64,000 nucleotides of DNA from Chitinophaga sp. (GTDB lineage: Bacteria > Bacteroidota > Bacteroidia > Chitinophagales > Chitinophagaceae), in assembly GCF_019236475.1 (NCBI RefSeq), contig NZ_JAFAIX010000009.1, positions 310,001-374,000 on the forward strand. Direction: 5' to 3'. Below, piece after piece: positions 823 to 14,630 of this stretch. Made by a program: the position numbers and the translations under genes. How positions within the stretch are numbered: position 1 is the stretch's first letter; every line of letters starts with the position of its first letter. A model generated the notes under the pieces. The model did no database searches, was not told the DNA's origin, and saw only the letters and a program-made list of their open reading frames with translations.

Positions 823-1140
823 ATGGCATTAAAAATTAATGAATGCCCCAACAACGCCATTTATGAACAAGGCGTAGAATGGTCCCTGGCAGAGGGGACC
901 TCCCTCAAAGGACAGGTAGTCCTCAGGAACAATGAACCGCTGGATACCAGCCAGCGAAAACCCCCTCTCAGCAACGATATCTTTTACATCGTCCCGGACA
1001 AATGCACGGAATGCCAGGGTTTCCATGAAGCACCCCGCTGCGCGGATGTTTGCCCCGTAGATGCCTGTGTTCCGGACGAATTGTACAGAGAAACGCTTGA
1101 CGAACTACTCGAGAAACAGGCTTTTCTCCATGCTGAATAA
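823..1140 (+). CDS. Ferredoxin paralogue lacking most of the N-terminal 4Fe-4S motif
   Basis: [20 protein letters not shown]... aligns throughout with the upstream ferredoxin except for a missing block that holds the CxxCxxC; second cluster [22 protein letters not shown] retained. Confidence 0.85.
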   Translation: MALKINECPNNAIYEQGVEWSLAEGTSLKGQVVLRNNEPLDTSQRKPPLSNDIFYIVPDKCTECQGFHEAPRCADVCPVDACVPDELYRETLDELLEKQAFLHAE

Positions 1141-3587: not shown

Positions 3588-3974
3588 TTATGATTTTACT
3601 ATTGCGGTAGCTTCTATTTCCACCAAATAGCGGGGATCAATCAGTTTGCTGACCTCCACCATGGTAGTAGCGGGTTTGATACTTTTGAAGAACTCGCCAT
3701 GAGCACGGCCAAATTCTTCCCAGCGACTGATATCCGTCACAAACATCCTGGTTCTTACCACATCATGTAAAGTGGCGCCCGCCCTAATTAATACCGCTTC
3801 GATTTTGGCGAGAATAAATTTCGTTTGTTCATACGCGTTACCCTCTGCCACCACTTTCCCTTCATCTTCTGCAACGGTACCTGATACTTCAATAACATTT
3901 CCGGTTCTCACTGCTCTGGAATAACCTACTTTGTCTTCCCAGGTGGCTCCGGAGGAATAATTGGTACGAGTCAT
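3588..3974 (-). CDS. RidA/YjgF family protein
   Basis: GYSRAVRTGNVIEVSGTVAEDEGKVVAEGNAYEQTKFILAKIEAVLIRAGATLHDVVRTRMFVTDI...LVEIEATAI. Confidence 0.9.
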   Translation of the reverse strand: MTRTNYSSGATWEDKVGYSRAVRTGNVIEVSGTVAEDEGKVVAEGNAYEQTKFILAKIEAVLIRAGATLHDVVRTRMFVTDISRWEEFGRAHGEFFKSIKPATTMVEVSKLIDPRYLVEIEATAIVKS

Positions 3975-4000
3975 ACAGCTAATATTTGTGATAAAGATAA

Positions 4001-5077
4001 TTATTTACTGTCGGCTGGCGTATTCCGAAATTTCACCACCTTCCCTAATAGATCAAACCAGAACGGAGCCCCTAGGGAAATGGCCATGGCAGTCATAAAC
4101 CAACCTGCCAATACCAACCAGATGTTTGCCTGCAGCGGGTGTGAGAGTCCGAGTCTCCCTACAGCAAAATCCCGGTGAATGCCCAACACATTGCGCGCCT
4201 CTGCCGCATCTCTGCGCAACATGCCATATACGGCCACTACAGCCGTATCCGCCACAAATGCCTTTACACTCGTATCTTGACGCAAGAAAGCACTGTCTTT
4301 ATAAAATAGTTGATGTTGTTGCAACGTGTCTACCATGGGATAAAAGGCATCGCTTCTACTGCTGGCCAATTGCACCATTTCCTGTCGTACTGTTTTATCT
4401 TTCATCAAAATCCTGGCAATCGCGATGGTATCTACGTTGAAGATACCGGCAATGAAGAAGCCAATGATCAATAGCCAGGTCTGGCAATGCTTGCGATACC
4501 AACTGCTGGCCCTAGACATGGTTTCATTGAACCAGGATTCTAATTGTATCCTGAACTGAGGAATATCTTCACCTGCATCTGCAAACAAATTTCGTATATG
4601 CGATACCGTATGTTGGCCTAATTGCAGGCTGTTTTCTTCCAGCGCGGCCTGGATCGTTTCCGTATCACTGCTCTTGGCAGTAGTACTGGTTCGCAACAGG
4701 TGCACAATCGTTTGAGAAAAGATAGTCGGACTGATATACGCCGGCCTGGATGCGGCGGTATTTTCTCCTAAGTAATGAATGGAAGGAGAGTCGTAGAATT
4801 TTTTCAATATGGGAGCATCGGCAAATGGATTGAAATAGTGGACAATACTCCATCCTTTTTCGTAAAACCAGGTAAAAAACGTGAATTTTCCGAATTTTCC
4901 CAGGTCATTTGCATGAGTATCTTCATCCAACATGCGTCGTAGCGCTTTCGACAAGATACGTGACCGCAGGCCAAAGGCGCGCGCGATCATTTCCTGTAAG
5001 ATAGTGACGAACAGAGAATATAGGAGATAAATGAATATCAGCCCCAGGGCAACATCGATGGCAAGGTTACTAAACAT
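4001..5077 (-). CDS. Conserved hypothetical integral membrane protein
   Basis: TM segments at N-terminus (LAIDVALGLIFIYLLYSLFVTI), middle and C-terminus (WLVLAGWFMTAMAISLGAPFWFDLL); no recognised catalytic domain. Confidence 0.75.
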   Translation of the reverse strand: MFSNLAIDVALGLIFIYLLYSLFVTILQEMIARAFGLRSRILSKALRRMLDEDTHANDLGKFGKFTFFTWFYEKGWSIVHYFNPFADAPILKKFYDSPSIHYLGENTAASRPAYISPTIFSQTIVHLLRTSTTAKSSDTETIQAALEENSLQLGQHTVSHIRNLFADAGEDIPQFRIQLESWFNETMSRASSWYRKHCQTWLLIIGFFIAGIFNVDTIAIARILMKDKTVRQEMVQLASSRSDAFYPMVDTLQQHQLFYKDSAFLRQDTSVKAFVADTAVVAVYGMLRRDAAEARNVLGIHRDFAVGRLGLSHPLQANIWLVLAGWFMTAMAISLGAPFWFDLLGKVVKFRNTPADSK

Positions 5078-5122: not shown

Positions 5123-6331
5123 TTACGTAGCTGCCGGAATAGCTTCAAAGAAACAGCAACTGCCACCTACCCAGGTATCATTACTGTTGAAGCCCACTCC
5201 AATCATTCTGCCCTTACTGATGCGGGACAGGTTATGCACGAGCATAGGTCGGGCCGCACCATCTGGCCAGATATAGATCATGCGAATTTCACAGATTGCA
5301 TTACCATCTGGCGTTACGATAACAGGTGCATATTGTACCCGATGCTGCAATATCCAGTTTTCCGGATCTTTGATCGCATTGATATCTTCTGCTGTTACAT
5401 CAATCTTCACGCCCTGGCCTGCAAAGGAAAACAAAGGTTTCAGTACATAATTCTCTAGATCGGTCGGAATTACCGGCAGTTGATGCAGAAACCAGCTTTT
5501 AGGCACATAATCACTGTGCAACAAAGGCATAGTATACTTACTGATCCGATAAAACCAGTTTGGATGCGTAATCCACTCTACATCTAAGTCTTGGAAGAGA
5601 TTTACATGCTCGCCCAAGGTGGATTGCTGACGTTGCAGATCGTCGAAGATAATGCGGTTATAGATGCGTTTTACAGGTGTGAGTACGCCATCTTTACGAT
5701 AGAAAAGGTGATTGCCTTCCTGTACCAGGTCTGTAATGCACACGGCACGAATCCCCAGGTATTTTTCGGTGCTGTAAAAATCGATTTTGGTTTTCTGTTC
5801 TTCCGGTTTTACTTCCAATAGAATGACTTCTTCCGGTGGAAGATCGCCGATGATCATCTCCCGTAGGAGCTGATAATAGCTATCGTCATCCAGACCGTTG
5901 AAATAGTTATTGAGTTCCTGAGGGATTTCAAAATGATTCCTAAACTGTTTGGCCATCACCTGCTGGAAGGCGTTCATGGTAGGGAAGCCTTGCAGTTCTA
6001 TCAGTTGTGGTTCCAGTTCGCCGGCTTCGTTGCGGGTAACGGCGAAATCGATCACAATGAAGTGCGGATGGTCATTTTCTCCAGGCACTTTGAGGGCTGG
6101 AGGAATGGCTTCTTCCGTCAGTGTTTTGAAATCGGGCCGCAGTATTACATTCACTACTTCTTCGCAAGCCTGTACTAGCTTGGCTGTCAGGTCGCCGGGA
6201 ACAAATACAGGCGTTTCAGCCACTCTGAATGCGGGGGCTACACCGGCTTCTTCGGCCATTCCCTGTAAGAAATGGTGATATGCCGTTGTGGTGAACTTTT
6301 CGTTATAGGCTTTTCTTACGGAAGGAATCAT
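5123..6331 (-). CDS. ATP-grasp-like ligase (family not firmly identified)
   Basis: C-terminal ATP-grasp-like signature YVLKPLFSFAGQGVKI...NWILQHRVQYAPVI...CEIRMIYIWPDG; IELQGFPTMNAFQ earlier in the protein; located in an amidoligase-type cluster. Confidence 0.65.
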   Translation of the reverse strand: MIPSVRKAYNEKFTTTAYHHFLQGMAEEAGVAPAFRVAETPVFVPGDLTAKLVQACEEVVNVILRPDFKTLTEEAIPPALKVPGENDHPHFIVIDFAVTRNEAGELEPQLIELQGFPTMNAFQQVMAKQFRNHFEIPQELNNYFNGLDDDSYYQLLREMIIGDLPPEEVILLEVKPEEQKTKIDFYSTEKYLGIRAVCITDLVQEGNHLFYRKDGVLTPVKRIYNRIIFDDLQRQQSTLGEHVNLFQDLDVEWITHPNWFYRISKYTMPLLHSDYVPKSWFLHQLPVIPTDLENYVLKPLFSFAGQGVKIDVTAEDINAIKDPENWILQHRVQYAPVIVTPDGNAICEIRMIYIWPDGAARPMLVHNLSRISKGRMIGVGFNSNDTWVGGSCCFFEAIPAAT

Positions 6332-6342
6332 AGTAAAATAGC

Positions 6343-7227
6343 TTAGAAGAATGTGTTTTCGTTATCATTATGGGCCGCTACCTGTACCAGTCGTTCGATG
6401 GTGGCCAATCGCTCACTGAGCGCACCATAGATGGCATAATCCAGGAATGCGGTGATGAAGCGGTCGTGTGTCAGCATGATTTTATCCGGATCGGTGAGCT
6501 GGGTAAGCATGCTTTCATACTTTTCAATACCGTGATGGGCGATGACCTGTTCTTTCTTTTCGTCTTGTAACAGGTACATGTGCATACCAGCGGCATCTGC
6601 TTCGGGATGGAACTGGGTTCCTATGAAATGTTCATTGAACCGGATGGCCATGGTGGCGCGTTCCAACGGAACGTGCGGACGTTCTTTTTCAATGGCGAGT
6701 ACTTTGGCGCCCATGGCGGCTAGGTTCTCTTCATTGAGTTCTATTACTTGCCAGTTGCGGCTGTCCACAATGTAAAAAGGATCAGGCAATGCGGAGAATA
6801 CTTTTTCCTGCATGCCCGCAGCAGTTTTATGTACGGGGAAAACGCCGAAGGCAGGGGATTTGCGCTTGCAAACATTCCCTAGCTTGTAATAGCGGCACAT
6901 GATCTGGTAGGAGTGACAGATAAAAAGCACAGGCTTTTTCTGTTCATGTGTTTTATTCCATGCCATCAGGTTTTCCACGAGGTGGAAATAAGCCTTTTCC
7001 CAGTCGCTACCTTCACTATCGACCGGACTTCCAGGGCCGCCAGTGGAGATATAAATATCGTAGGATGTATCTGGTACCTGTTGCTGTAGTCTTACCTCAA
7101 ATTCATCAAAAAGCAGATTGAGCGAGTGCATCTCTGCATATTTCAGCAATATCTCCCGGATACAGCGCATACCCTCGTTCGGTACGCCTTCGTACATATC
7201 CAGCACGGCTATTTTAATGGTGCGCAT
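6343..7227 (-). CDS. Class I glutamine amidotransferase (GMP-synthase-like GATase1)
   Basis: STGGPGSP; nucleophile region VLFICHSYQIMCRYY; HPE dyad in FIGTQFHPEAD. Confidence 0.82.
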   Translation of the reverse strand: MRTIKIAVLDMYEGVPNEGMRCIREILLKYAEMHSLNLLFDEFEVRLQQQVPDTSYDIYISTGGPGSPVDSEGSDWEKAYFHLVENLMAWNKTHEQKKPVLFICHSYQIMCRYYKLGNVCKRKSPAFGVFPVHKTAAGMQEKVFSALPDPFYIVDSRNWQVIELNEENLAAMGAKVLAIEKERPHVPLERATMAIRFNEHFIGTQFHPEADAAGMHMYLLQDEKKEQVIAHHGIEKYESMLTQLTDPDKIMLTHDRFITAFLDYAIYGALSERLATIERLVQVAAHNDNENTFF

Positions 7228-7265
7228 GCTGCAAAATTACAAATATCATGGGAGGAATCCTGGAA

Positions 7266-8366
7266 TTAGCAGTTCGCAAGAAATTGTTGCTGAATGAAAT
7301 CGGTTACTGCAACGAGGTCTTGGGTATCTTGGTACACTTTCAGTTGCCTATCGGCGCCAGTTCCATTTTCGAGGATGCGGGCGGTGGCACTGAGAATTTC
7401 CCGGCTGCCTAAGTCATCTACCACATCGTCAATGAAGTCGAGCAGTTCAAAGATGAGTGCCCTGGCATTCACTTCCATTTCCTTACCGAAATCGATTAGG
7501 TTGCCCTCGATGCCATAACGGGAAGCCCGCCATTTATTTTCGTTGACGAGAGCCCGGTTATAGATAATGAAGTTCAAGTTCTGCATGCGGAGCTTATAGA
7601 TCTTAGCACATACGGCTTGGAACAATCCAGCAATGGTGATGGTATCGTCTAGGGTTAAAGGCACATCACAGATCCGGAATTCCACGGTGTTGAAGAAAGG
7701 ATGTACGCGCAGGTCCCACCATACTTTTTTGGCATTGTCTATACAGTTGGTTTTCACCAGGAGCTGGATATAACGATCGTATTCTTCAATGCTGCTAAAG
7801 TAATCCGGGATACCGGTACGAGGGAATTTATCAAAAACCTTTGTGCGGAAGGATTTAAAACCGGTATTCCGGCCTTCCCAGAAAGGGCTGTTGGTGCTTA
7901 ATGCAAATATATGCGGTAGGAAATACCTAACGGAATTAGCGATGTGTAGTGCCATATCCCGACTTTCCATGCCTACATGTACGTGCAGGCCAAAAATGAG
8001 ATTGGAGCGTGCGGCATCCTGCATTTCGTTGACGATTTCGAAATAGCGGGGATTATCCGTAATCAATTGCTGTTGCCAGTGGCTGAAAGGGTGAGTCCCG
8101 GAAGCGCCGATGCTGAAGCCAAGATCCCCGGCAATCTGCGCGATGGTTTTACGCAGGAGGGCTACATCTTCGCGGGCATCGTGGATATTATTACAAACGC
8201 GGGTGCCTACTTCCACTACTGCCTGGTGAAATTCTGCTTTCACCTGGTCGCGGATAACCTTGTGGGCATGTTCCACAATTTTTTGTTCATGCGATCTCAA
8301 CTCCCTGGTTACGGGGTCCATCACCATGTATTCTTCTTCTATACCCACTGTGAACGCATTGTACAT
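7266..8366 (-). CDS. Carboxylate-amine ligase, GCS2 / YbdK family
   Basis: FTVGIEEEYMVMDPVTREL...EFHQAVVEVGT...GTHPFSHW...HVHVGM...DLRVHPFFNTVEFRICDVP; typical COG2170 motifs. Confidence 0.9.
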   Translation of the reverse strand: MYNAFTVGIEEEYMVMDPVTRELRSHEQKIVEHAHKVIRDQVKAEFHQAVVEVGTRVCNNIHDAREDVALLRKTIAQIAGDLGFSIGASGTHPFSHWQQQLITDNPRYFEIVNEMQDAARSNLIFGLHVHVGMESRDMALHIANSVRYFLPHIFALSTNSPFWEGRNTGFKSFRTKVFDKFPRTGIPDYFSSIEEYDRYIQLLVKTNCIDNAKKVWWDLRVHPFFNTVEFRICDVPLTLDDTITIAGLFQAVCAKIYKLRMQNLNFIIYNRALVNENKWRASRYGIEGNLIDFGKEMEVNARALIFELLDFIDDVVDDLGSREILSATARILENGTGADRQLKVYQDTQDLVAVTDFIQQQFLANC

Positions 8367-8433
8367 AAAGTGCTCCTATCGTTTTTAATTTATACAAATG
8401 TATGTCGGGAAATCAATCGGGTGTAATTTTTTT

Positions 8434-9369
8434 CTATTTATCAGGATGGATAAATTTTCCCCAAGTGAGGTTGTCTTTTCCGGGTTCCTGTGCGATGGCT
8501 CTTTCTATGGCATATTCGGCGCTTATTTCCACGATCCATTCGAAATTCTTTTTTCCAATGGAGTGAATATCGGCATCGGGAGCAGGATTGCAAAAGTCGA
8601 TTGCATAAGGTACATCCCCTCTGACGGCAAATTCCACGGTATTGAAATCGTATCCCAGGTGTTGGTTCAATGCCAACGTATCCCGGGTAATTTCATCCAA
8701 CACAGCCTGGGGCGTGTCGAAATCAGCATGGTAACGCTCGTGATGCTGATGACGGGGATTGTAGGGCATAATATGCACATGTTTCCCGCCAATACAGTAA
8801 CAACGGTAGTAGGAAGTGAAATCGATCTCCTCCTGCAACATCATGACTAATTGACCTGTTTCCTGGTGGATATTGTAAAACTCTTGTTTGTCGTTCAATC
8901 GGAATACGTTCTTCCAACCGCCGCCATCAAAGGGTTTGAGGTAGGCAGGAAAGCCTACATAGTCGAAGATGGCATTCCAACTGAGGGGGTAAATCAAATT
9001 GCGAAATGATTTATCGGAGGTATTGTCCGGCAACTGAAAAGAGGGGAGCAGTGCGGTTCTGGGCACGCGTACACCAATTTTTTCTGCGAGGGCGTTATTG
9101 AAAAATTTATCGTCGGCGCTCCACCAGAACGGGTTGTTGATAACGGCGGTTCCAGAAGCGGCGGCATTTTTTAGATAAGCCCGGTAGAAGGGTACATCCT
9201 GGGAAATACGGTCTATGATCACAGCATATCCAGCCGCTTCTCCCTGTAATACTTTGTCGATGGTGACAAATTCTGCGAATATTCCCGGCGGATTTTTCCG
9301 GTTAATAGCGTCTACGAATGCTTGTGGAAAGGTATTTTCCTGTCCGAACAGGATGCCAATCTTTTTCAT
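8434..9369 (-). CDS. ATP-grasp domain ligase (RimK/Ddl-like)
   Basis: FPAYLKPFDGGGWKNVFRL, MMLQEEIDFTSYYRCYCIGGKHVHIMPYNP, NTVEFAVRGDVPYAIDFCNPAPDAD. Confidence 0.8.
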   Translation of the reverse strand: MKKIGILFGQENTFPQAFVDAINRKNPPGIFAEFVTIDKVLQGEAAGYAVIIDRISQDVPFYRAYLKNAAASGTAVINNPFWWSADDKFFNNALAEKIGVRVPRTALLPSFQLPDNTSDKSFRNLIYPLSWNAIFDYVGFPAYLKPFDGGGWKNVFRLNDKQEFYNIHQETGQLVMMLQEEIDFTSYYRCYCIGGKHVHIMPYNPRHQHHERYHADFDTPQAVLDEITRDTLALNQHLGYDFNTVEFAVRGDVPYAIDFCNPAPDADIHSIGKKNFEWIVEISAEYAIERAIAQEPGKDNLTWGKFIHPDK

Positions 9370-9372
9370 GTG

Positions 9373-10080
9373 TTACCTGATTAATGAGAGATAGCGAGGA
9401 AGCATATTACGCCATGCTGGCCAGTCGTGGGTACTTTCCGGACGTATATCCAGCCAATGGTTGATATCCTTCCTGGTCAGTATGCCAGACATATTTTCAT
9501 TCTGTGTGCGGGTAACATCGTTGTCGGCGACGCCGAGAATGATACCCATACGCCAGAGGGCTTCGTGTTGATTGTCGCGTATAAAATCCACGGGATTACT
9601 ATAATAGACTTGATCGTCATAATAGCCATCCAGCCTGGATTTTATATCAAAAATGCCGCTGAGGGAGAAAAGATAAGATACAATTTCCGGATGACGAAAT
9701 GCAAAAGAGGTGGCATGAAATCCGCCGAAACTGCAACCAGCAGTGATAACCCGGGTATGGCCTGTTTCGGTAGTCATCCTCGGATATATTTCTTCCAGCA
9801 GGAGTTTGTCATAACGTTGATGGTTATACGCTCTTTCAGCGGGTGTGATGTCTTTGTTGTACCAACTACTCGTGTCATAACTATCCGGGCAATATACCCG
9901 AACAATTCCTTCGTCAATAAACCAACTGATAGCCTCTATGAGGCCTCTGTCTTTACTTTCATAATATCTACCCATGGAGGTAGGAAACAATAGGAGCGGA
10001 TAGCCAGCATGCCCGAACACCAACATTTCAAATTCCTGGTCTATGTTGGGGGAATGCCATTTATAGAAATTTTCAATCAC
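9373..10080 (-). CDS. Alpha/beta-hydrolase esterase (COG4947-like); GTG start
   Basis: Nucleophile elbow AGCSFGGFHATSFAFRHPE; LFPTSMGRYYE; C-terminal ESTHDWPAWRNMLP; 3-bp gap to the downstream ATP-grasp gene. Confidence 0.82.
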   Translation of the reverse strand: MIENFYKWHSPNIDQEFEMLVFGHAGYPLLLFPTSMGRYYESKDRGLIEAISWFIDEGIVRVYCPDSYDTSSWYNKDITPAERAYNHQRYDKLLLEEIYPRMTTETGHTRVITAGCSFGGFHATSFAFRHPEIVSYLFSLSGIFDIKSRLDGYYDDQVYYSNPVDFIRDNQHEALWRMGIILGVADNDVTRTQNENMSGILTRKDINHWLDIRPESTHDWPAWRNMLPRYLSLIR

Positions 10081-10142
10081 GGTGCAAGCTTTGTCTAAAT
10101 TTAAAAAATGTTTCGCGAATTGAATATGCGTACCTTCAATTT

Positions 10143-10913
10143 ATGATCTGGAATGATTTCGTTTATGCACCCGGACTGGACCGGGAGGTGCTCCTGGATA
10201 TTTACCAGTTCAGCGAACAGCCGAAAACATTGCTGCTGTTGAATGACGGACAAGAAGTTCGGAAAATGGATATGGCTGCATTATTGGATAACCTACGATT
10301 GCCAGTGGCGGTTGTGGCTATTCATGCAGGTCCAGCGCGATTGCAAGAATACGGCATCGCATCTCAACCCGATTACAACGGAGATGGCGCTAAAGCCGGC
10401 GCCTATACTACGTTTATCAATACCGTTTTACTTCCCGCCCTCTATAATCGTTTTCCTGATTGGAAACCCTTACCAGTGGCCTTTGCAGGCTTTTCCCTGG
10501 GAGGTTTGTCCGCCCTGGATATCGTTTGGCACCATCCGGATATTTTTTCCTTTGCTGGCGTATGTTCTGGCTCCCTTTGGTGGCGAGATGTGCCACTGGG
10601 CCCCGATTACAGCGATGCCAATAACCGTATCATGCACCGATTGATCCGCCAAAGTGCCTATCAACCTGGATTACAGTTTTTCTTCCAATGTGGCACCGAA
10701 GATGAAACCGCTGATCGTAACGGGAATGGCATCATAGACAGCATTGATGATACCAAAGATCTGATCCAAGAGTTGTTATCCAAAGGATATGAAATGGATA
10801 AAGACCTGTGGTATTATGAAATTGCCGGGGGCAGACACGATGCTATCACCTGGGAAAAAGCCCTGACGGCCATGTTGTTGTTGCCTTTTTTCAATGGTCC
10901 GGATAGAAAATAA
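10143..10913 (+). CDS. Esterase-family alpha/beta-hydrolase with an EF-hand-like loop
   Basis: AFAGFSLGGLSALDIVWHHPDIFSFAGVCSGSLWW; GGRHDAITWEKAL; internal DRNGNGIIDSIDD. Confidence 0.85.
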   Translation: MIWNDFVYAPGLDREVLLDIYQFSEQPKTLLLLNDGQEVRKMDMAALLDNLRLPVAVVAIHAGPARLQEYGIASQPDYNGDGAKAGAYTTFINTVLLPALYNRFPDWKPLPVAFAGFSLGGLSALDIVWHHPDIFSFAGVCSGSLWWRDVPLGPDYSDANNRIMHRLIRQSAYQPGLQFFFQCGTEDETADRNGNGIIDSIDDTKDLIQELLSKGYEMDKDLWYYEIAGGRHDAITWEKALTAMLLLPFFNGPDRK

Positions 10914-12436: not shown

Positions 12437-13207
12437 TTGAAAACCTTGCAGTTTCCAGTAACTCTTCCAATTGGATCAACCCATTTGCCCCTTCATGCAC
12501 TGACGGAAACCTTGGGTATGTTCATCGGTTTCAGATTCTTTTTATTGCTGAAGAAGCGTCAGGGAGACGCGGTTACTCCGTCCAATCGCATCTGGGCTAT
12601 TATAGGAGCTATTTTTGGCGCACTCTTCGGCAGCCGATTGTTGGGGGCACTGGAAAACCCACCCGAACTCGCGTCTGCCCATAATATCTTACTCTACGTC
12701 TATGCTAGCAAAACCATAGTGGGCGGCCTTCTCGGAGGACTCGCAGGTGTAGAGCTCACCAAAAAGCTGATAAAAGAAACCCGATCCACCGGTGATTTAT
12801 TTGTTTATCCGCTGATACTTGCCATGATGATAGGACGTATCGGGTGCTTTAGCATGGGCGTGTACGAAGAAACCTATGGTTTGCCTACTACGCAGCCATG
12901 GGGCATGTACCTCGGCGATCAGTACCTCCGACATCCTGTAGCCCTATACGAAATCTTATTCCTCGGACTGTTGTGGATTTCGCTGGCATTGCTGGATAGA
13001 AAGGTAGTATTGGTTCAGGGGGCGCGATTTAAGCTGTTCATGGTTGCTTATTTATTATTCCGTTTCTTACTCGATTTCATAAAACCCGGTTACAGGTTTT
13101 CTATTGGTATAGGATCTATACAGATAGCCTGTTTGCTGGGATTACTATATTATCTCCCGGATTTCATTATACCGGGCCGACTCATTGAAAAACGCCATTA
13201 TGCCTGA
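12437..13207 (+). CDS. Divergent prolipoprotein diacylglyceryl transferase (Lgt)-like membrane protein; TTG start
   Basis: Lgt-like topology and motifs (ALFGSRLLGALENP; IVGGLLGGLAGVELTKK; MIGRIGCFSMGVYEETYGLPTTQPWG; HPVALYEI). Confidence 0.75.
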   Translation: MKTLQFPVTLPIGSTHLPLHALTETLGMFIGFRFFLLLKKRQGDAVTPSNRIWAIIGAIFGALFGSRLLGALENPPELASAHNILLYVYASKTIVGGLLGGLAGVELTKKLIKETRSTGDLFVYPLILAMMIGRIGCFSMGVYEETYGLPTTQPWGMYLGDQYLRHPVALYEILFLGLLWISLALLDRKVVLVQGARFKLFMVAYLLFRFLLDFIKPGYRFSIGIGSIQIACLLGLLYYLPDFIIPGRLIEKRHYA

Positions 13208-14630
13208 AAAAAATTACACCTATTATGATTTCACATTGAGCATTTGCAGTACTTGTTTACGCAGAGCAGATGCCAAAGTGATCTTCGAAGACGGAAAAGT
13301 GTTTATGGTAAAACGCTGTCCGGAACATGGAATGGAAAAAGTACTGATTGCGACGGATATTGAGTATTACAAAAATACCCGTAACTACAACAAACCTTCT
13401 GAAGCACCTTTAAAAACCAATACCAATACGCATTACGGATGCCCTTATGATTGCGGATTATGCCAGGATCATGAACAGCATTCTTGTTTGAGTGTTATTG
13501 AACTGACAGACAGATGTAATCTCACCTGTCCTACCTGTTATGCAATGTCCAGTCCGCATTATGGCCGTCATCGTACATTGGAGGAGATCGAGCAGATGTT
13601 GGATATCATCGTTGCCAATGAGGGGCAACCGGATGTGGTACAATTGAGTGGAGGAGAACCGACGCTGCATCCTCAGTTCTTCGAGATATTGGATATTGCC
13701 AAACGTAAGCCTATACGACATCTGATGGTCAATACCAATGGTATTCGTATTGCGAAAGACAAGGAATTCACTGCCCGCCTGGCTACCTATATGCCTAATT
13801 TTGAGATCTACTTACAATTCGATTCTTTCCGACCGGAAGTGCTGGAACGTATGCGTGGTAAGGATTTGACGGATATACGCAAACAGGCGCTGGAAAACCT
13901 GAATGAAGTAAACCTCAGTACAACACTGGTGGTTACGCTCCAGAAAGGGCAAAATGAAGATGAGATGGGGGCTATTATTGATTATGCCCTGAAGCAGCGT
14001 TGTGTGCGTGGCGTTACATTCCAGCCGGTACAGGTGGCGGGCCGTACGGATGATTTTGATCCTGCTACCGATCGTATAACGTTAACGGAAGTACGTCAGC
14101 GGATATTGGAGCAGTCGCCCATCTGGCAGCCGAATGATATTATTCCGGTTCCTTGTAACCCGGATGCATTGGCGATGGCGTATGCCCTGAAAATTGACGG
14201 GGAGGTCTTTCCGCTCACCCGTTATGTAGATCCGGCGGTTTTGCTGAATAACGGAAAAAATACGATTGTATATGAACAAGACGAGCGTTTGCATCAGCAT
14301 GTGCTGAAGATCTTCAGCACGGGGATTTCCACTGATGCCGCTGTCAATGATATGCAGTCGTTATTATGTTGCTTGCCGCAGATACAAGCGCCCGGACTGG
14401 ATTATACCAACCTATTCCGGATAGTGATTATGCGTTTTATTGATGCTTATGATTTTGATGTCAGGGCGATTAAGAAGTCTTGCGTACACATTGTACATAA
14501 AGATGGGCGCATTATTCCATTTGAGACCATGAACCTGTTTTACAGGGACGACAAAGAGGAATACCTGAAAGCATTGCAGATGGAAATGGGTGGCCCAAAG
14601 CGGATGGTATCTCCCGATATAAAATCATAA
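13200..14630 (+). CDS. Radical SAM protein of the MJ0619 / tetraether-synthase-like (COG1964-type) group
   Basis: CSTCLRRADAKVIFEDGKVFMVKRCPEHG N-terminal Cys motif; GCPYDCGLCQDHEQHSC; radical SAM motif DRCNLTCPTCYA; QLSGGEPTLHPQF. ATG at 13200 overlaps the end of the Lgt-like gene. Confidence 0.85.
   Translation: MPEKNYTYYDFTLSICSTCLRRADAKVIFEDGKVFMVKRCPEHGMEKVLIATDIEYYKNTRNYNKPSEAPLKTNTNTHYGCPYDCGLCQDHEQHSCLSVIELTDRCNLTCPTCYAMSSPHYGRHRTLEEIEQMLDIIVANEGQPDVVQLSGGEPTLHPQFFEILDIAKRKPIRHLMVNTNGIRIAKDKEFTARLATYMPNFEIYLQFDSFRPEVLERMRGKDLTDIRKQALENLNEVNLSTTLVVTLQKGQNEDEMGAIIDYALKQRCVRGVTFQPVQVAGRTDDFDPATDRITLTEVRQRILEQSPIWQPNDIIPVPCNPDALAMAYALKIDGEVFPLTRYVDPAVLLNNGKNTIVYEQDERLHQHVLKIFSTGISTDAAVNDMQSLLCCLPQIQAPGLDYTNLFRIVIMRFIDAYDFDVRAIKKSCVHIVHKDGRIIPFETMNLFYRDDKEEYLKALQMEMGGPKRMVSPDIKS

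What the first reader, a model, noticed from the sequence alone, without database searches (positions are those of the whole stretch)
5123..10913. Putative amide-bond-forming biosynthetic locus: two ATP-grasp-like enzymes, GCS2/YbdK ligase, class I glutamine amidotransferase and two esterases
Seen: five closely spaced minus-strand genes in the order esterase, ATP-grasp, GCS2, GATase1, ATP-grasp-like (gaps 3, 67, 38 and 11 bp), with a second esterase divergently transcribed 62 bp away. Known: ATP-grasp and GCS2 enzymes ligate carboxylates to amines, and GATase1 domains release ammonia from glutamine. Genomic surveys of amidoligases have described uncharacterised neighbourhoods of this general kind (from memory, not checked). 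Inference: the locus makes and/or hydrolyses a small amide, peptide or ester conjugate. No NRPS, RiPP precursor or known glutathione partner is visible, so the product is unknown.
Basis: partly seen in the sequence, partly recalled or inferred. Interest (0 to 1): 0.78.

Follow-up and report, generated by a model that had tools for sequence, protein, structure and literature searches.

The report
Conserved Chitinophaga peptide-amide ligase gene cluster
Six neighbouring genes of a soil bacterium form a widely inherited enzyme set that very probably builds, and also takes apart, a small peptide-like molecule nobody has yet identified, so the finding is real and testable, though it is built from known enzyme types.

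Summary
A divergent second esterase lies next to them. The set is not a local accident: all 25 genomes of the genus (Chitinophaga) carry it. In 396 Bacteroidota genomes the RimK-like gene (135), the GspS-like gene (114), GCS2 (129) and GATase1 (86) co-occur almost as one unit, and the RimK-like gene recurs in 9 of 195 Verrucomicrobiota genomes.

The main new result concerns GATase1. It is absent from all eight genomes that carry a cluster-type M29 aminopeptidase, and in seven of those M29 sits in its slot between GCS2 and the GspS-like gene. Amidohydro_3 abuts the GspS-like gene in three further loci. So this slot's conserved role is probably amide/peptide hydrolysis, not ammonia supply, echoing E. 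coli glutathionylspermidine synthetase/amidase. The genome has BshC but no bacterial-type GshB, which argues against a glutathione pathway.

Best reading: an NRPS-independent peptide (or peptide-amine) ligase pathway with a paired hydrolase. Substrates and product are unknown.

The parts
9373..10080 (-). estA: cytoplasmic esterase-fold (PF00756) hydrolase, first gene of the minus-strand run; invariant S117, D211 and H218 are the likely catalytic residues
   Evidence: directly upstream of the RimK-like gene in many loci
8434..9369 (-). RimK-like ATP-grasp ligase (labelled R2K in the working tables)
   Evidence: NCBIfam TIGR00768 35.9 bits; AlphaFold pLDDT 85 and Foldseek hits to RimK, Ddl, LysX, ArgX; D86, K145, E246, D258, N261 at least 97% conserved in 142 homologues
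7266..8366 (-). GCS2/YbdK-type carboxylate-amine ligase with the G-h-E-x-E signature (G8-I-E10-E-E12)
   Evidence: the only GCS2 in the genome
6343..7227 (-). class I glutamine-amidotransferase-fold Cys hydrolase; C104/H207/E209 invariant, unusual CHS[FY]Q elbow; proposed amide/peptide hydrolase
   Evidence: replaced by M29 aminopeptidase in other genomes
5123..6331 (-). GspS/YgiC/YjfC-like ATP-grasp ligase, the fifth gene of the run
   Evidence: AlphaFold pLDDT 91.7 and Foldseek to 3n6x, 1m0w, 3kal, 7uk6, 9cjn; profile hit region matches YgiC
10143..10913 (+). estB: second PF00756 esterase, divergently transcribed; homologous to estA
   Evidence: an estB-type gene is present in 72 of 80 named loci
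10081..10142 (.). 62-bp divergent intergenic region between estA and estB, presumed promoter region (not shown)
   Evidence: no exact TAnnTTTG -7 box inside it

Best explanation
The locus encodes an NRPS-independent pathway that builds a small peptide or peptide-amine conjugate from free building blocks and also contains the hydrolase that cuts it. GCS2 (probably a gamma-glutamyl-type ligation) and the RimK-like ATP-grasp act as one module and make a short (iso)peptide through acyl-phosphate chemistry. The GspS/YjfC-like ATP-grasp then activates the peptide carboxylate and joins it to an amine: a polyamine, amino acid or other primary amine. The GATase1-fold protein does not mainly feed ammonia to a ligase. 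It is the Cys amidase/peptidase partner of the GspS-like ligase, cutting the conjugate back or removing a gamma-glutamyl group; other lineages use an M29 aminopeptidase, or perhaps an Amidohydro_3 enzyme, for the same step. The esterases hydrolyse an ester or amide precursor or product. Shown: gene content, folds, conservation, co-occurrence and mutual exclusivity. Inferred: substrates, order of steps, direction of the hydrolase, and the role of the esterases.
For: Folds. Same gene order in 24 of 25 same-genus genomes (the remaining locus, L023, is cut by a contig end inside GAT) and across the phylum. Co-occurrence in 396 genomes: R2K/GSP 110 shared, GSP/GCS2 109 shared; GATase1 found in 86, 85 of them with R2K or GSP. 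GAT and GSPlike behave as one pair (33 and 34 of 80 named loci), including where both have moved away from R2K-GCS2. All 8 genomes with cluster-type M29 lack GAT (two-sided Fisher p 4e-4 among 114 GSP+ genomes, not corrected for phylogeny), and in 7 of 8 M29 lies between GCS2 and GSPlike. M29 is again next to GSPlike in a Verrucomicrobium, and Amidohydro_3 abuts GSPlike in three loci. Precedents: E. coli GspSA carries its synthetase and a Cys amidase in one protein (PMC6272389); YgiC/YjfC are peptide-spermidine ligases (annotation; Pederick 2023 as cited in PMC12568646); the same fold makes amides in E-64 biosynthesis (Cp1B).
Against: No substrate or product is known. 37 of 114 GspS-like+ genomes have neither GAT nor M29; three of these have Amidohydro_3 beside the gene, and in most others I inspected no hydrolase was evident. 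One family (f18) has R2K, GAT and GSPlike but no GCS2. The Arg that precedes the metal Asp in GspS/YgiC ('RxD') is not conserved and the ExN metal motif reads ExQ in the window family, so chemistry may differ. TM-scores to known structures are only 0.5-0.6 with high rmsd. The exclusivity counts are not corrected for shared ancestry.
Confidence: 0.55

Rival explanations
1. GATase1 is a true glutaminase that channels ammonia to a cluster ligase, so the product carries a primary amide (as in MurT/GatD or N-acetylglutaminylglutamine amide, from memory).
For: Cys-His-Glu triad invariant; the class I GATase fold usually does this; tight pairing with the GspS-like ligase.
Against: Replaced by an M29 aminopeptidase, which is not expected to supply ammonia from glutamine, in the same slot. 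The CHS[FY]Q elbow lacks the canonical glycines. Many genomes have the ligases without any GATase1 of this family.
Confidence: 0.15
2. A PuuA/PuuD- or butirosin-like protecting-group route: GCS2 gamma-glutamylates an amine, other enzymes process it, and GATase1 (or M29) removes the glutamyl group.
For: GATase1-fold gamma-glutamyl hydrolases exist (PuuD, GGP1; fold statement from memory, activity of GGP1 in PMC3042935). M29 as replacement fits removal of an N-terminal residue.
Against: No oxidase or dehydrogenase step is conserved between ligation and hydrolysis. Two further ATP-dependent ligases suggest building rather than catabolism. Family f18 lacks GCS2 but keeps GAT.
Confidence: 0.15
3. 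A low-molecular-weight thiol pathway of the glutathione/trypanothione type (GCS2 makes gamma-Glu-Cys, an ATP-grasp adds glycine, the GspS-like ligase adds a polyamine).
For: GCS2, a eukaryotic-glutathione-synthase-fold ligase and an amidase-type protein are all present.
Against: The genome encodes BshC and has no prokaryotic GshB by PF02955, so it probably uses bacillithiol. No thiol-disulfide reductase was recognised in the conserved neighbourhood.
Confidence: 0.1
4. A peptide-tagging or RiPP system in which the ATP-grasps modify a protein or ribosomal precursor.
For: RimK and graspetide ligases are among the structural neighbours of the 8434-9369 protein.
Against: No conserved small precursor ORF or exporter was evident in the compared neighbourhoods (ORFs under 60 aa were not examined). 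GCS2 and GspS-type enzymes act on small molecules.
Confidence: 0.06

Closest known systems
E. coli glutathionylspermidine synthetase/amidase (GspSA, gss)
   Same: An ATP-grasp ligase of the same fold tied to a Cys hydrolase (fused there; adjacent genes here).
   Different: The hydrolase is a CHAP domain there, GATase1 fold here. No glutathione pathway is evident here (no GshB found). The window cluster adds GCS2, a RimK-like ligase and esterases.
E. coli YgiC / YjfC peptide-spermidine ligases
   Same: Stand-alone ATP-grasp ligases of the same fold and size (386-387 aa against 402); YgiC is the best solved relative by profile.
   Different: Sequence identity is in the twilight zone. The E. coli genes sit with ygiB or yjfI-yjfM, not with GCS2, GATase1 or RimK-like genes. 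The window family lacks the conserved Arg of the RxD motif.
E-64 biosynthesis (Cp1B ATP-grasp; PMC12568646)
   Same: NRPS-independent stepwise amide formation by a stand-alone ligase of the same fold (9cjn, rank 18).
   Different: Fungal; no GCS2, GATase1 or RimK-like partner among the genes I read about.
YbdK / GCS2 family (PRK13515, TIGR02050)
   Same: Clear membership of the GCS2 protein; GhExE signature conserved.
   Different: E. coli YbdK is not known to me to sit in such a cluster; substrate unknown.
PuuA-PuuD gamma-glutamylputrescine cycle
   Same: GS-fold gamma-glutamyl ligation paired with a GATase1-fold hydrolase (from memory).
   Different: No oxidoreductases; two ATP-grasp ligases extra; different families.
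Amidoligase neighbourhoods surveyed by Iyer et al. 2009 (from memory; paper not held)
   Same: General kind: linked ATP-grasp, GCS2-type ligases and hydrolases.
   Different: I could not check whether this exact set, or the GATase1/M29 exchange, was listed there.

Membership tests
GCS2 / YbdK carboxylate-amine ligase | Full-length family match over curated cut-off | tested here: met
   PF04107 206.9/21 bits; PRK13515 532/371 bits; YbdK structure 1r8g 182 bits
GCS2 / YbdK carboxylate-amine ligase | GhExE active-site signature | tested here: met
   G8, E10, E12 at least 97% conserved in 103 homologues; signature as defined in PMC2588565
Glutathionylspermidine synthetase / YjfC ATP-grasp clade | Fold | tested here: met
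   Foldseek: the 22 matches at E below 0.001 are GspS, eukaryotic glutathione synthase and related folds
Glutathionylspermidine synthetase / YjfC ATP-grasp clade | Sequence match to PF03738 over cut-off | tested here: not met
   13.7 bits against 29.3; so related in fold, not filed as a member
Glutathionylspermidine synthetase / YjfC ATP-grasp clade | RxD / ExN metal and phosphate motif | tested here: inconclusive
   D95 and E112 invariant, Q114 in place of Asn, Arg not conserved; correspondence placed by eye, the profile alignment covers only the C-terminal ATP loop
Glutathionylspermidine synthetase / YjfC ATP-grasp clade | Polyamine as amine substrate | not testable with these tools
   needs enzymology
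RimK-type ATP-grasp | Family model over cut-off | tested here: not met
   TIGR00768 35.9 bits against 143.4; fold matches RimK/Ddl/LysX
R2K ATP-grasp clade (PMC4431377) | Two RAGNYA lysines with loss of the linker lysine | tested here: inconclusive
   K145 conserved and K153 common, but the linker-type K88 is also kept in the 31 closer homologues; Pfam R2K_2 below cut-off
Class I glutamine amidotransferase | Family match over cut-off and Cys-His-Glu triad | tested here: met
   PF00117 41/22.8 bits; C104, H207, E209 invariant in 21 sequences
Class I glutamine amidotransferase | Canonical GxCxGxQ glutaminase elbow | tested here: not met
   [FL][IV]CHS[FY]Q is the prevailing form, with few variants
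Anti-phage defence system | Match to PADLOC models | tested here: not met
   no hit for seven proteins

The most novel reading that the evidence does not exclude
A modular ligase pathway present in about a third of the sampled Bacteroidota genomes makes a new, widespread peptide-amine metabolite. Its second ligase (GspS-like or circularly-permuted ATP-grasp) and its hydrolase (GATase1-fold, M29 or Amidohydro_3) are freely exchanged for unrelated enzymes, and a class I GATase has become the conjugate's amidase.
Probability: 0.35. Interest if true: 0.75.

Novelty: new variant of a known kind. Interest (0 to 1): 0.55.

Why it matters
If right, a metabolite made by a large share of free-living Bacteroidota, and by some Verrucomicrobiota, is still unidentified and can be found by deleting one small cluster. 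It would also warn against reading every class I GATase next to a ligase as an ammonia donor, because here comparative genomics points to a hydrolase that can be swapped for a metallo-aminopeptidase.

Tried and rejected
Defence system: no PADLOC hit. Plasmid-borne spread: no hit for the two ATP-grasp proteins in PLSDB; plasmid GCS2 relatives (at most 43% identity) that I opened lie in unrelated contexts. Glutathione pathway: no GshB, BshC present. Downstream neighbours as partners: the sigma-factor-like genes after GCS2 in other Chitinophagaceae and the Rid and 358-aa genes at window 3588-5077 are lineage-restricted synteny. A Bacteroidota -7 box scan gave no more matches than chance, so promoters were not argued from it. 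F7 (450-480 aa, CP_ATPgrasp_2-like) as a hidden GSPlike orthologue: profile comparison gave 3% probability, so it is treated as a replacement of similar type. Literature: no paper in the held library was found to describe the cluster; the 2009 amidoligase survey is not held.
Full report
WHAT IS THERE. The window lies in a 6.48-Mb genome. Its genus is most likely Chitinophaga: one of the same-genus genomes, G018, has an 803,114-base contig carrying the locus, the same length as the C. eiseniae contig of L150. Pfam and NCBIfam name GCS2 firmly (PRK13515 532 bits), GATase1 clearly (41 bits) and both esterases. Neither ATP-grasp passes a sequence threshold.

FOLDS. The 5123-6331 protein was modelled from 26 homologues at mean pLDDT 91.7. 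The 22 PDB matches with E below 0.001 are glutathionylspermidine synthases, eukaryotic glutathione or homoglutathione synthases, YjfC, related effectors and the E-64 ligase Cp1B. D95, E112 and Q114, which I place at the GspS metal site by eye, are invariant, and 'YVLKPLFSFAGQGV' aligns with the YgiC ATP loop 'YVVKPIFSREGANV'. The Arg before the metal Asp is absent and ExN reads ExQ. The 8434-9369 protein (pLDDT 85) matches Ddl, RimK, LysX and ArgX. The GCS2 protein carries GhExE. The GATase1 protein keeps C104/H207/E209 in all 21 homologues, but its elbow is CHS[F/Y]Q.

CONSERVATION. All 25 genomes of the genus have the GCS2 protein at 79-100% identity. The neighbouring ATP-grasp, GATase1 and GspS-like genes follow in the same order, apart from one locus cut by a contig end. 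In 396 Bacteroidota genomes: R2K 135, GspS-like 114, GCS2 129 and GATase1 86. Overlaps are 110 (R2K/GspS-like), 109 (GspS-like/GCS2) and 85 of 86 GATase1 genomes with R2K or GspS-like (Fisher p 1e-47 or less, not corrected for phylogeny). Named relatives include Pedobacter, Mucilaginibacter, Dyadobacter, Niastella, Pontibacter, Cryomorpha, Ignavibacteria MAGs and Verrucomicrobia MAGs. The RimK-like gene is in 9 of 195 Verrucomicrobiota genomes. In 11 genomes of named loci where I looked, all had a GspS-like match, two of them (G437, G438) only as fragments at contig ends.

MODULES AND EXCHANGES. Two pairs hold together: R2K-GCS2 and GAT-GSPlike. GAT and GSPlike are still adjacent when they lie elsewhere in the genome. 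In eight genomes of six families an M29 aminopeptidase of one subfamily (at least 59% identity) is present and GATase1 is absent; in seven of them M29 lies between GCS2 and GSPlike. One of these is in a family (f51) whose other sampled members have GATase1. M29 is also next to GSPlike in Verrucomicrobium G436. In three loci of two other families an Amidohydro_3 gene overlaps or abuts GSPlike. In nine fetched loci whose genomes lack GSPlike, a 450-500-aa protein related to CP_ATPgrasp_2 follows R2K. Of the 17 GspS-like-negative genomes that have GATase1, 16 also have R2K. So the pathway needs a second ligase and, often, a hydrolase, but their fold can change.

MECHANISM. Three ligases of acyl-phosphate type plus an amide/peptide hydrolase fit the synthesis and controlled cleavage of a small peptide or peptide-amine conjugate. 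The hydrolase reading of GATase1 rests on its displacement by an aminopeptidase, on its non-canonical elbow, and on the GspSA precedent where the ligase carries its own Cys amidase (PMC6272389). YgiC and YjfC are annotated as peptide-spermidine ligases. No substrate can be named from sequence. The genome's BshC and lack of GshB speak against a glutathione-type thiol. estA-family esterases are also paired with an unrelated ATP-grasp_4 protein in Pararhizobium and Peptoclostridium, which suggests an ATP-grasp/esterase link outside this cluster.

LIMITS. 37 of 114 GspS-like+ genomes have neither GATase1 nor M29. Family f18 lacks GCS2. Counts are not phylogenetically corrected. Gene calls in other genomes are mechanical ORFs. 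Transcription was not tested. Whether an earlier survey listed this neighbourhood could not be checked.

VERDICT. Real, conserved and broader than reported; built from known enzyme kinds; product unknown; the GATase1/M29 exchange is the most informative new clue.

Noticed in passing
317-664 and 823-1140 (+): Two tandem ferredoxin-like ORFs; the second lacks the stretch with the first Cys motif (MALKINECPNN... against [22 protein letters not shown]...), as if one cluster-binding site was deleted.
   Followed up: no
12437-14630 (+): An Lgt-like prolipoprotein diacylglyceryl transferase relative (PF01790, 74.9 bits) overlaps a 481-aa radical-SAM-looking protein; an unusual pairing.
   Followed up: no
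3588-5077 (-): A Rid-family protein (PF01042) and a 358-aa protein without Pfam match follow the cluster; also found after it in C. eiseniae and, by gene size, C. niastensis but not in other genera examined.
   Followed up: partly
L180:14588-15799 (+): In five Dyadobacter loci a 403-425-aa gene lies directly downstream of the GspS-like gene; the one tested (L180) is a class III aminotransferase 2 bp away, a possible hint to an amine substrate.
   Followed up: partly
L253:5828-7756 and L251:5788-7753: estA-type esterases paired with an ATP-grasp_4 protein in Pararhizobium and Peptoclostridium: a minimal ATP-grasp/esterase pair outside Bacteroidota.
   Followed up: partly
L266:7957-9426, L267:6591-8060, L268:10237-11763: Amidohydro_3 genes overlapping or abutting the GspS-like gene, a possible third hydrolase type in the GATase1/M29 slot.
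   Followed up: partly
L111, L113, L114, L119, L127, L140, L141, L142, L146: A 450-500-aa CP_ATPgrasp_2-like protein lies directly downstream of the RimK-like gene where the GspS-like ligase is missing.
   Followed up: partly
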